A DNA stretch of 64,000 nucleotides. It comes from a virus. A program made the translations under genes and the position numbers. Under the pieces are notes generated by a model. That model made no database searches. It saw nothing but the letters and a program-made list of their open reading frames with translations, and was not told the DNA's origin. The DNA is taken from positions 62,001 through 126,000 of IMG/VR virus record IMGVR_UViG_3300025930_000007. One strand, given 5' to 3'. This document shows positions 2,162 through 3,206 of this stretch, in pieces; position 1 is the stretch's first letter, and each line of letters opens with the position of its first letter.

Positions 2162-2414
2162 GTGGGCTGCTGGTCCGAGGATTCTTCACTTATGATGCAG
2201 AGAGCACCCTTCGGGGTGTACACCTTCACGGCTCCAACGAGCGTCTGTGAATGGCAAACGAATCCGCTGCAGTTGCTCTTCGCAAGAAGGGCCGATTGCA
2301 ACGTTAAGAGGTCTCCTGGTGCGAAGGAAGCGAGATCGACGGCGCAAGCCGGCAGAACCGAACCTGGGCTGAAAAGCTCATTCGACGCAAACTCCTTGGC
2401 CGACAATTGCCCAC
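2162..2414 (+). ncRNA. Y-RNA-like array unit 1 (large insert)
   Basis: The closing stem GTGGGC (2162-2167) pairs with GCCCAC (2409-2414). The second stem GGTC-C-GAGG (2172-2180) pairs with CCTTGGCC (2394-2401) and leaves one unpaired C, as in the classical Ro-binding helix GGUCCGA of animal Y RNAs. ATTCTTC follows. The insert of about 210 nt is the largest in the array and has several capped hairpins: CACCC-TTCG-GGGTG, GCTC-CAAC-GAGC, CTTC-GCAA-GAAG, GGC-GCAA-GCC. It is unlike a tRNA. What it recruits is unknown. Confidence 0.7.
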
Positions 2415-2422
2415 AAAAAATC

Positions 2423-2461
2423 CTAGCAGAGGGATGGGCCTATCTCCCATCCCTCTGCTAG
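2423..2461 (+). repeat. Perfect 16-bp hairpin between array units 1 and 2
   Basis: 2423-2438 pairs with 2446-2461 without mismatch around a 7-nt loop. There is no U-tract downstream on the plus strand, so it is not a standard terminator. It may be an RNase III site or a stabiliser separating the large first unit from the rest; this is inference. Confidence 0.6.
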
Positions 2462-2472
2462 CTGAAAAATTC

Positions 2473-2604
2473 GGCGGCTGCAGTGCGGGGATACTTCAAT
2501 CAAACCAGCGGGTTGCCGGTGCGAGTCCGGCCCGGGCCGAAAGGTCCGAGTAGCTCAAGAGTAGAGCAGCAGGTAAAAAAAGACCCTGTACGCCAATTGC
2601 CGCC
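2473..2604 (+). ncRNA. Y-RNA-like array unit 2 with permuted tRNA mimic
   Basis: Closing stem GGCGGC (2473-2478) / GCCGCC (2599-2604); second stem GTGCGGGG (2483-2490) / CCCTGTAC (2584-2591); ATACTTC follows. The insert is a circularly permuted tRNA: T-arm GCCGG-TGCGAGT-CCGGC (2515-2531), acceptor-like stem CGGGCC-GAAA-GGTCCG (2533-2548), D-arm GCTC-AAGAGTA-GAGC (2553-2567). ACCAGC/GCAGGT stands in for the anticodon stem. Known bacterial YrlA RNAs have this topology, with the Ro-binding helix in place of the anticodon arm. Confidence 0.85.
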
Positions 2605-2614
2605 ATAAAAATTC

Positions 2615-2729
2615 GAGGGCTGCTGATCGAGGTTACTTCTAACGGAGCCGGAGTGCTGGCCGAAAGGCCAAGCGACGGCATGACGCAAGTCTGTGATGCG
2701 CAGGCATTTCCTTGATCCCAATTGCCCTC
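2615..2729 (+). ncRNA. Y-RNA-like array unit 3
   Basis: Closing stem GAGGGC (2615-2620) / GCCCTC (2724-2729); second stem GATCGAGG (2625-2632) / CCTTGATC (2710-2717), 8 bp; TTACTTC at 2633-2639. The insert has the hairpin TGGCC-GAAA-GGCCA (2657-2670), resembling the capped acceptor stem of units 2 and 4, followed by GCAT/ATGC enclosing GAC-GCAA-GTC. No clear T-arm, so the tRNA mimicry is partial or degenerate. Confidence 0.8.
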
Positions 2730-2739
2730 ATAAAAATTC

Positions 2740-2867
2740 GGGAGCTGCAGAGCGCGGTTACTTCGCCTTCCAAGCGAGAGATCCAGGTGCAAGTCCTGGC
2801 CCGGGCCGAAAGGCGCGGGTGGTGTAAGAGCAGCACGCTTAACGTTCCGTGTTCGACCATTGCTCCC
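2740..2867 (+). ncRNA. Y-RNA-like array unit 4 with permuted tRNA mimic
   Basis: Closing stem GGGAGC (2740-2745) / GCTCCC (2862-2867); second stem GAGCGCGG (2750-2757) / CCGTGTTC (2847-2854); TTACTTC at 2758-2764. Insert: T-arm CCAGG-TGCAAGT-CCTGG (2783-2799), acceptor-like stem CCCGGGCC-GAAA-GGCGCGGG (2800-2819, one G-G mismatch), D-arm GTG/CAC with a 9-nt loop (2822-2836), and AAGC/GCTT replacing the anticodon stem. Same order as unit 2 with different stem sequences, so a second tRNA mimic. Confidence 0.85.
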
Positions 2868-2880
2868 AAAAATTGATTGA

Positions 2881-2936
2881 ATCCCGGTCGAGAAGGTCAG
2901 GATAGCGCACTCAGTGTGATGACCCCTTCGCCGGAT
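2881..2936 (+). ncRNA. Divergent hairpin inside the array
   Basis: A 56-nt imperfect hairpin: ATCC-C-GG pairs with CCGGAT, GAAGG with CCTTC, TCA with TGA, and CGCAC with GTGTG around a 3-nt loop. It lacks the TACTTC element and the usual closing stem, but it sits in the array with similar A/T-rich linkers. Its 5' strand (GGTCGAGAAGGT) resembles the Ro-binding strand of animal Y RNAs. It could be a minimal Y RNA or a spacer hairpin. Confidence 0.45.
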
Positions 2937-2944
2937 AAATATTC

Positions 2945-3042
2945 GAGGGCTGATTGGCGAGGTTACTTCTTGCTTTGAAACCCAGGCAGGTTCGAGTCCT
3001 GCGGGGCCGTGGGTACGGCTTTCCTTGCCTCCAATTGCCCTC
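2945..3042 (+). ncRNA. Y-RNA-like array unit 5 (T-arm module)
   Basis: Closing stem GAGGGC (2945-2950) / GCCCTC (3037-3042); second stem GGCGAGG (2956-2962) / CCTTGCC (3023-3029); TTACTTC follows. The insert holds a canonical T-arm GCAGG-TTCGAGT-CCTGC (2986-3002) and the hairpin GCCGT-GGGT-ACGGC (3006-3019) where the capped acceptor would be. There is no D-arm, so this is a reduced tRNA mimic. Confidence 0.82.
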
Positions 3043-3052
3043 ATAAAAATTC

Positions 3053-3137
3053 GGGAGCTGCTAGGTCGAGGGTACTTCTAACTGATGATGCTAGATTGTG
3101 CCGAAAGGCACATACTCCTTGGCCGCCTATCGCTCCC
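3053..3137 (+). ncRNA. Y-RNA-like array unit 6 (GAAA hairpin module)
   Basis: Closing stem GGGAGC (3053-3058) / GCTCCC (3132-3137); second stem GGTCGAGG (3064-3071) / CCTTGGCC (3117-3124), 8 bp; GTACTTC follows. The only clear insert element is TGTGCC-GAAA-GGCACA (3097-3112), the same GAAA-capped stem seen in units 2-4 but without T- or D-arm. Confidence 0.8.
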
Positions 3138-3148
3138 ATAAATATTCT

Positions 3149-3206
3149 GGGGCTGAAGGTCGCGGATACTTCAATTGGTGAAAGACCGTGGCCGACTAAT
3201 TGCCCC
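3149..3206 (+). ncRNA. Y-RNA-like array unit 7 (minimal)
   Basis: Closing stem GGGGC (3149-3153) / GCCCC (3202-3206); second stem GGTCGCGG (3158-3165) / CCGTGGCC (3186-3193), 8 bp; ATACTTC at 3166-3172, then a small TTCA/TGAA loop. With 58 nt it is nearly just the Ro-binding module and shows the minimal conserved core. Confidence 0.8.

What the first reader, a model, noticed from the sequence alone, without database searches (positions are those of the whole stretch)
2162..3206. Covarying double-stem core shared by all seven units
Each unit closes with a different but complementary stem (GTGGGC/GCCCAC, GGCGGC/GCCGCC, GAGGGC/GCCCTC twice, GGGAGC/GCTCCC twice, GGGGC/GCCCC). A second stem changes in its outer part (GGTC/GGCC, GTGC/GTAC, GATC/GATC, GAGC/GTTC) while keeping the inner CGnGG/CCnTG pattern with a G-U wobble. 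TACTTC follows on the 5' strand. Compensatory changes within one locus are direct evidence of RNA structure and mark the probable Ro-binding module.
Basis: seen in the sequence. Interest (0 to 1): 0.85.

Follow-up and report, generated by a model that had tools for sequence, protein, structure and literature searches.

The report
Phage family of tRNA-mimicking Y RNAs
A large bacterial virus carries a dozen small RNA genes near its own copy of the Ro60 protein; all share one two-stem handle that evolution has kept paired, while their tops range from almost nothing to nearly complete imitations of transfer RNA.

Summary
Seven units (2162-3206) lie just upstream of a TROVE/vWA Ro60 gene (3257-4981). 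Each closes with a covarying outer stem and a 7-8-bp inner stem with an invariant G-U wobble. Five more units lie 3 kb upstream of the window, and a related virus record (Ro60 59% identical) has seven. Over the 19 units 259 of 266 stem cells pair, the wobble is 19 of 19, and 0 of 20,000 permutations do as well. Best reading: phage Y RNAs of the YrlA class, with one shared Ro60-end handle and varied tRNA-like tops. No unit searched passes Rfam's YrlA cut-off (best 54.1 bits, in the relative, against 69). Similar units lie near Ro60 in some other phages, not all. Four of the 19 carry a permuted tRNA-like set that includes a 5-bp anticodon arm; such arms recur beside phage Ro60 genes above chance. 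I saw no description of this arm in the passages I could read. Ro60 binding is inferred, not tested; which stem it grips is unresolved.

The parts
1980..2007 (+). sigma-70-like promoter TTGACA-16-TATACT upstream of the array
   Evidence: 11 of 12 matches; the only promoter-like site in 1400-5400, shuffles mean 0.7; consensus match only
2162..2414 (+). Y RNA unit B1 (253 nt): outer stem 2162-2167/2409-2414, inner stem 2172-2180/2394-2401 with extra C, TTCTTC 2182-2187, large structured top
2473..2604 (+). Y RNA unit B2 (132 nt): outer 2473-2478/2599-2604, inner 2483-2490/2584-2591, TACTTC 2492-2497; top has T arm, GAAA-capped hairpin and D-like arm; Rfam YrlA 30.3 bits
2615..2729 (+). Y RNA unit B3 (115 nt): outer 2615-2620/2724-2729, inner 2625-2632/2710-2717, TACTTC 2634-2639; no T arm
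2740..2867 (+). Y RNA unit B4 (128 nt): outer 2740-2745/2862-2867, inner 2750-2757/2847-2854, TACTTC 2759-2764; top is a permuted tRNA-like set with anticodon arm UUCGC-CUUCCAA-GCGAG, T arm, GAAA-capped acceptor-like hairpin, D-like arm
2945..3042 (+). Y RNA unit B5 (98 nt): outer 2945-2950/3037-3042, inner 2955-2962/3023-3030 (7 bp), TACTTC 2964-2969; T arm
3053..3137 (+). Y RNA unit B6 (85 nt): outer 3053-3058/3132-3137, inner 3064-3071/3117-3124, TACTTC 3073-3078; reduced top with GAAA hairpin
3148..3207 (+). Y RNA unit B7 (60 nt): outer 3149-3153/3202-3206, inner 3158-3165/3186-3193, TACTTC 3167-3172; minimal top
2154..2161 (+). spacer AAAWATTC; also at 2465, 2607, 2732, 2937, 3045, 3140 (before each unit) and 5050 (before tRNA-Cys)
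   Evidence: the eight AAATATTC/AAAAATTC matches of the window all precede one of these RNAs; candidate processing signal, inferred
3257..4981 (+). Ro60 orthologue, 574 aa, TROVE + vWA domains
   Evidence: Pfam PF05731 E 5.8e-21, PF25045 E 2.5e-11; Xenopus Ro 1yvp E 1.1e-20 with H196 aligned to H187

Best explanation
This is a phage-encoded family of Y RNAs of the bacterial YrlA class: seven in the window, twelve in the 266-kb virus record, encoded near the phage's own Ro60. SHOWN: each unit has the same two-stem end with an invariant G-U wobble and compensatory changes; the neighbouring gene is a Ro60 with its RNA-contact histidine; the tops vary from about 20 nt to a tRNA mimic in permuted order (anticodon arm, T arm, capped acceptor-like stem, D arm). 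INFERRED: the units are cut from a joint precursor with the tRNAs; the shared end binds the phage Ro60, stabilising the RNA and gating or sitting on the Ro60 ring; the varied tops are interchangeable effector ends that bring tRNA-binding partners, most likely host PNPase as in the RYPER complex, to Ro60. One Ro60 with many adaptors would let the phage steer decay or quality control of tRNAs and other structured RNAs during infection.
For: Covariation: 19 units in two phages, outer 112 of 114 and inner 147 of 152 cells paired, 0 of 20,000 permutations as good for either stem; G-U wobble 19 of 19. Independent count on 18 units: 97.6% paired, covariation score 0.499 against 0.139 in shuffles and at most 0.127 in slid registers. 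Gene context: Ro60 directly downstream in the window and a 59% identical Ro60 on the same strand as, and downstream of, the seven units of the relative. YrlA similarity: B2 30.3 bits E 3e-4, A4 30.1 bits, C1 of the relative 54.1 bits E 1.6e-11 over the full model. Sub-threshold YrlA matches upstream of Ro60 in 6 of 7 other phage loci searched that way. T arms in 9 of 19 units. Anticodon arms: 15 of 30 T arms in Y regions of 13 genomes are preceded by one, null 2.1, 0 of 2000; 4 of 9 in the two phages. Literature seen as passages: basal stem of YrlA binds Rsr and its tRNA-like end binds PNPase (PMC8394870).
Against: No unit in the window reaches Rfam's YrlA gathering score of 69, nor do the other units searched. 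Ten of 19 units have no T arm by the rule used, so 'tRNA mimic' does not fit all. No expression or binding data. The phage record has no PNPase-type domain and no RtcB, so the partner would have to be the host's. Of 18 named phage Ro60 loci, 9 gave at least one unit by one of two descriptors and 9 gave none; of 19 IMG/VR Ro60 loci, 2 had upstream hits (L061 three, L063 one). The double-stem array is therefore not universal, or the descriptor is too narrow. Single-sequence folding is only moderately better than shuffles (z -1.8 to -3.5).
Confidence: 0.72

Rival explanations
1. The units are worn-out tRNA genes: a tRNA cluster whose members decayed and kept only some arms.
For: They lie among many tRNA genes; 9 of 19 hold a T arm; unit A2 scores 30.5 bits against the tRNA model, cut-off 29.
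Against: Decay does not create a shared outer and inner stem with compensatory changes and a fixed G-U wobble in 19 of 19 units. In the fullest units the arms come in permuted order, and units without any T arm keep the same core.
Confidence: 0.05
2. The array is a leader of the Ro60 messenger: repeated binding sites by which Ro60 regulates its own synthesis, not free small RNAs.
For: Seven units in tandem end 50 nt before the Ro60 start codon, behind one promoter-like site.
Against: Five further units lie about 6 kb upstream of Ro60 among tRNAs, and in the related phage the seven units are spread over 13 kb among tRNAs. The spacer AAAWATTC also precedes a tRNA.
Confidence: 0.1
3. Y RNAs in structure, but their main job is to act as decoys or sensors for host nucleases that cut tRNAs, with Ro60 holding or reading the cut product.
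For: Anticodon arms of 5 bp with A37-A38 in 4 of 9 T-arm units and in several other phages. [quoted passage not shown] The phage record carries two RNA-ligase domains.
Against: 10 of 19 units have no T arm and 15 of 19 no anticodon arm by the rule used, so this cannot be the job of all. PMC7790460 reports that fragments of YrlA were not detected, so it was not cut by the nuclease studied there. No cleavage data here.
Confidence: 0.13

Closest known systems
YrlA, Y RNA-like A (Rfam RF02553), Salmonella and mycobacterial Y RNAs
   Same: Stem made by the two ends, then asymmetric internal loop, then second stem; T arm, capped acceptor-like hairpin, D arm in permuted order; gene near an Rsr/Ro60 gene.
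   Different: None of the units searched reaches the gathering score; twelve divergent copies in one genome; several lack part or all of the tRNA-like domain; some add a full anticodon arm, which the passage read on YrlA (PMC8394870) does not mention.
Deinococcus radiodurans Y RNA with Rsr and PNPase (RYPER)
   Same: Expected mechanism: Y RNA tethers Ro60/Rsr to a nuclease (passages in PMC4726728, and PMC7790460).
   Different: No PNPase-type domain found in the phage record; many Y RNAs per Ro60; interaction untested.
Metazoan Y RNAs and nematode sbRNAs
   Same: Lower stem, upper stem, then a short conserved motif at the 5' end of the loop (UUAUC there, UACUUC here; GUUAUC in several actinobacteriophages); Ro60 partner.
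   Different: No Rfam Y_RNA match up to E 10; the diagnostic bulged cytidine could be present only in unit B1 of the 19.
Phage Y RNAs reported before
   Same: Papers seen as passages state or suggest that YrlA-type RNAs occur in phages (PMC7765460; PMC12282133).
   Different: Those passages report neither an array of this size nor the anticodon arm. The primary papers (Chen 2014; Sim and Wolin 2018; Sim 2020) were not held, so this comparison is incomplete.

Membership tests
YrlA (RF02553) | Covariance-model score at or above gathering (69 bits) | tested here: not met
   Best in window 30.3 bits (B2); A4 30.1; C1 in the related phage 54.1, E 1.6e-11
YrlA (RF02553) | Basal stem formed by 5' and 3' ends, with a second stem beyond an internal loop | tested here: met
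   19 of 19 units; covariation in both stems
YrlA (RF02553) | tRNA-like domain with T, acceptor-like and D arms | tested here: inconclusive
   T arm in 9 of 19 units; T plus capped hairpin plus D-like arm, by rule or by reading, in A2, B2, B4, C1 and C7; no T arm in B3, B6, B7
YrlA (RF02553) | Bound by the Ro60/Rsr protein | not testable with these tools
   Gene neighbourhood only
Metazoan Y RNA (RF00019) | Model match and bulged cytidine in the Ro60 site | tested here: not met
   No match up to E 10 in 1950-3260; an extra C only in B1
Ro60/Rsr (TROVE protein) | TROVE and vWA domains | tested here: met
   PF05731 75.6 bits, PF25045 44.2 bits, both over cut-off
Ro60/Rsr (TROVE protein) | Conserved histidine needed for Y RNA contact (H187) | tested here: met
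   Window H196 aligns with Xenopus H187; at least 90% conserved in 17 phage Ro60 proteins. The role of H187 is from a passage in PMC4030889

The most novel reading that the evidence does not exclude
Phage Y RNAs are a diversified class of circularly permuted tRNA mimics that can include a complete anticodon arm (anticodon-like loops CUU, UCC, CAU, GCA here; GUU in three other phages). They serve as decoys or sensors for host anticodon nucleases, with Ro60 holding the RNA and handling or reporting the cut product: an RNA-based anti-defence kit carried in many copies.
Probability: 0.17. Interest if true: 0.85.

Novelty: new variant of a known kind. Interest (0 to 1): 0.62.

Why it matters
What Y RNAs do for Ro60 is still debated. 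A virus that keeps one Ro60 and a dozen Y RNAs with the same handle but different tops is a natural domain-swap series for asking what the top does. The 19 natural variants also show which bases are fixed (GC-UG, AU[U/C]-GC, the G-U wobble) and so which to mutate. If the anticodon arms prove to be decoys, phage Ro60 systems would join the counter-defences against tRNA cleavage.

Tried and rejected
Rfam at gathering threshold gives only tRNAs in the window. Relatives of the Ro60 in viral contigs by single protein: none. By a 3-protein alignment: 19 loci, only 2 with upstream descriptor hits. Pattern search of viral contigs: 6 loci, of which by my reading only L030 is a true relative; the other five look like coding or unrelated DNA without the closing stem, and no Ro60 was found in the six held stretches. 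Chance-like hits of the pattern in the record were dropped: of 27 matches, 12 belong to 11 of the units; the reversed control pattern gave 26 + 9.

My first fold of the units used wrong ends for several of them and gave a z of 0.16 for B5. With correct ends B5 gives -1.83. Only the second is used, but both are told.

The motif list in the phage scans (TTATC, TTACC, TTAAC, TTTCATC) was widened after reading the sequences, so hits with those motifs are partly circular; TACTTC/TTCTTC hits are less so. For Atu_ph07 and Va1 I scanned a stretch downstream of Ro60; for the others upstream stretches of unequal length. The rule for anticodon arms (3-8 nt before the T arm, at least 4 bp, U33, purine 37) was also set after seeing examples; the shuffle null used the same rule. 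In that count Atuin and phage G were left out (Atuin's T arms are annotated tRNAs; phage G's one T arm is preceded by an arm of 4 bp with loop AUUAUGA), and C7 was found later and counted apart.

Considered and rejected: CRISPR-like or transposon repeats (units share only the ends), plain tRNA pseudogenes, terminators (no T run after the outer stem).

Full report
OBSERVATION. The window is bases 62,001-126,000 of a 266,490-bp virus record. Seven units at 2162-2414, 2473-2604, 2615-2729, 2740-2867, 2945-3042, 3053-3137 and 3148-3207 lie in tandem on the + strand. Each has an outer stem (6 bp; 5 bp in the last) and an inner stem (7 or 8 bp), separated by a short 5' loop (TGCA, TGCT, TGAT, TGAA, TGCTG, TGCTA) and a longer 3' loop ending ATT or ATC, with NTACTTC after the inner 5' arm (NTTCTTC in the first). 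The stems differ between units but match within units: 41 of 42 outer and 54 of 56 inner cells pair, and among all 5040 re-pairings only 4 and 2 do as well. A descriptor of the two stems finds all seven, against a mean of 0.03 in 30 shuffles of that stretch; over the rest of the window it finds 10 on + and 8 on -.

THE SET IS LARGER. Pattern searches of the whole record led to five more units upstream of the window, at record positions 58,623-58,748, 58,758-58,887, 58,898-59,082, 59,092-59,182 and 59,366-59,492. A scan of viral contigs brought one related virus record (locus L030, 137 kb). Its Ro60 is 59% identical over query residues 1-565, and it has seven units on the same strand, spread from 110,246 to 123,656 among tRNA genes. 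Across the 19 units 112 of 114 outer and 147 of 152 inner cells pair; permuted means are 90.8 and 121.5, with 0 of 20,000 permutations as good for either stem; the fifth inner pair is G-U in 19 of 19. On an alignment of 18 of these (C7 was found later), nine of 14 pairs show changes on both sides, 97.6% of cells pair, and the covariation score is 0.499 against 0.139 in shuffles and at most 0.127 in slid registers. The cells count paralogues and relatives, not independent events.

THE NEIGHBOUR. The gene at 3257-4981 is a Ro60: TROVE and vWA domains over Pfam cut-offs, best solved relative Xenopus Ro (1yvp, E 1.1e-20), with window H196 aligned to H187. H196 is at least 90% conserved in 17 phage Ro60 proteins. 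A passage of PMC4030889 calls H187 essential for contact with Y RNA. The phage collection holds 375 records with a Ro60 match.

WHAT THE UNITS ARE. Rfam's YrlA model matches B2 at 30.3 bits (E 3e-4), A4 at 30.1 and unit C1 of the relative at 54.1 bits over its full length (E 1.6e-11). All are under the gathering score of 69, so formal membership is not met, but the likeness is well above chance. The tops differ. A2, B4, C1 and C7 hold, in this order, a 5-bp anticodon-like arm, a T arm, a capped acceptor-like hairpin and a D-like arm: a tRNA opened between D and anticodon arms. The D-like arm passed my rule only in A2; in B2, B4, C1 and C7 I read it from the sequence. B2 has T arm, hairpin and D-like arm; A1, A3, A5 and B5 have a T arm; B3, B6 and B7 have none. 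A2 even passes Rfam's tRNA cut-off (30.5 against 29).

OTHER PHAGES. I looked beside Ro60 in 18 named phage records. With two versions of the descriptor, 9 of 18 gave at least one hit (CcrPW, Olaya, BRock, GiJojo, Farewell, prophiGD43A-5, Atuin, Forza, FuzzBuster) and 9 gave none; shuffle means were at most 0.2. Bacillus phage G, which gave none under a G+C rule, shows by eye several AACAGTTACTTC units and one unit with a T arm. Of 19 IMG/VR Ro60 loci, 2 had upstream hits (L061 three, L063 one). YrlA matches under the cut-off lie upstream of Ro60 in 6 of 7 loci searched with permissive settings; 13 loci (12 phage loci and this record's own upstream stretch) searched at gathering threshold gave no YrlA match.

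ANTICODON ARMS. In 30 T arms from Y regions of 13 genomes, 15 are preceded at 3-8 nt by an arm of at least 4 of 5 bp with U33 and a purine at 37; 12 of these have A37-A38; 9 have 5 bp, 8 of them with A37-A38. Shuffles of the preceding 34 nt give means of 2.1, 0.24, 0.28 and 0.03; 0 of 2000 reach the observed value for any. In the 19 units of the two phages, 4 of 9 T-arm units carry such an arm (2 of 5000 shuffles do as well), all four with 5 bp and A37-A38 (null mean 0.008, 0 of 5000). Three other phages (CcrPW, Olaya, FuzzBuster) have the loop CUGUUAA, whose anticodon would be GUU. The rule was set after seeing examples, so the exact odds are optimistic; the A37-A38 excess was not part of the rule. 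A passage of PMC8394870 describes YrlA as resembling the D, T and acceptor arms. My library searches listed no paper that I could see describing an anticodon arm in a Y RNA, but the primary YrlA papers were not held, so I do not claim that it is unreported.

MECHANISM. Shown: structure, conservation, neighbourhood. Inferred: a promoter-like site at 1980-2007 (11 of 12) may drive the array; AAAWATTC precedes each of the seven units and one tRNA and may be where a joint precursor is cut; the shared end binds Ro60; the tops recruit partners. The known model is RYPER, where the basal stem of a bacterial Y RNA binds Rsr and the other end binds PNPase (passages in PMC8394870 and PMC4726728). The record shows no PNPase-type domain and no RtcB but two RNA-ligase domains. 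A host PNPase tether is therefore my first choice, and a decoy for tRNA-cutting nucleases a live second, at least for the units with anticodon arms. Authors of PMC7790460 raised a competitor role for YrlA themselves (passage).

WHICH STEM BINDS. PMC4726728 and PMC4450293 (passages) place Ro60 on the lower stem with its bulges, then an upper stem, then UUAUC at the 5' end of the loop. Read by position, the outer stem here is the lower stem and TACTTC sits where UUAUC sits; several actinobacteriophages have GTTATC there. Read by recalled sequence of human Y RNAs, the inner stem resembles the Ro site, and B1 has the extra C. I cannot decide between them.

VERDICT. The reading as an RNA structure is strongly supported; the reading as Ro-binding module is likely for the whole two-stem end but unproven, and not specifically for TACTTC. 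Kind: new variant of a known kind.

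Noticed in passing
window 1858-1956: Looks like a tRNA-Ser (GCT) with acceptor GGAAGCG/CGCTTCC and an odd T loop; neither ARAGORN nor the Rfam scan at gathering lists it.
   Followed up: no
window 2423-2461: Perfect 16-bp hairpin between units B1 and B2 with a T run on the minus strand: terminator-like for antisense transcription.
   Followed up: no
window 2872-2942: A separate stable hairpin between B4 and B5 without the Y core (z -2.2); role unknown.
   Followed up: no
window 5050-5057 and G000 61269: The spacer AAATATTC also stands directly before tRNA-Cys and before a weak tRNA upstream of the window, as if one processing signal served Y RNAs and tRNAs.
   Followed up: partly
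L028 3178-3256: The tRNA-Thr(tgt) annotated in prophage prophiGD43A-5 overlaps a YrlA match at 3200-3299 and a permuted set of arms; probably a Y RNA mislabelled as tRNA.
   Followed up: partly
L026 3613-3821: The pseudo-tRNA annotated in Rhodococcus phage Trina lies in a stretch with GGTTATC and T arms and may be a Y RNA.
   Followed up: no
G000 225324-225782 and 185438-185926: Two RNA-ligase (PF09414) domains in the same virus record; a P-loop kinase-like protein (AAA_33) lies at window 7370-7828 within the tRNA cluster.
   Followed up: partly
L015 2590-2949: A tmRNA gene (116 bits) stands upstream of the tRNA and Y RNA cluster.
   Followed up: no
L057 6060-6200, L058 5714-5845, L060 5972-6118: Single Y-like double-stem hits downstream, not upstream, of Ro60 in three IMG/VR contigs.
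   Followed up: no
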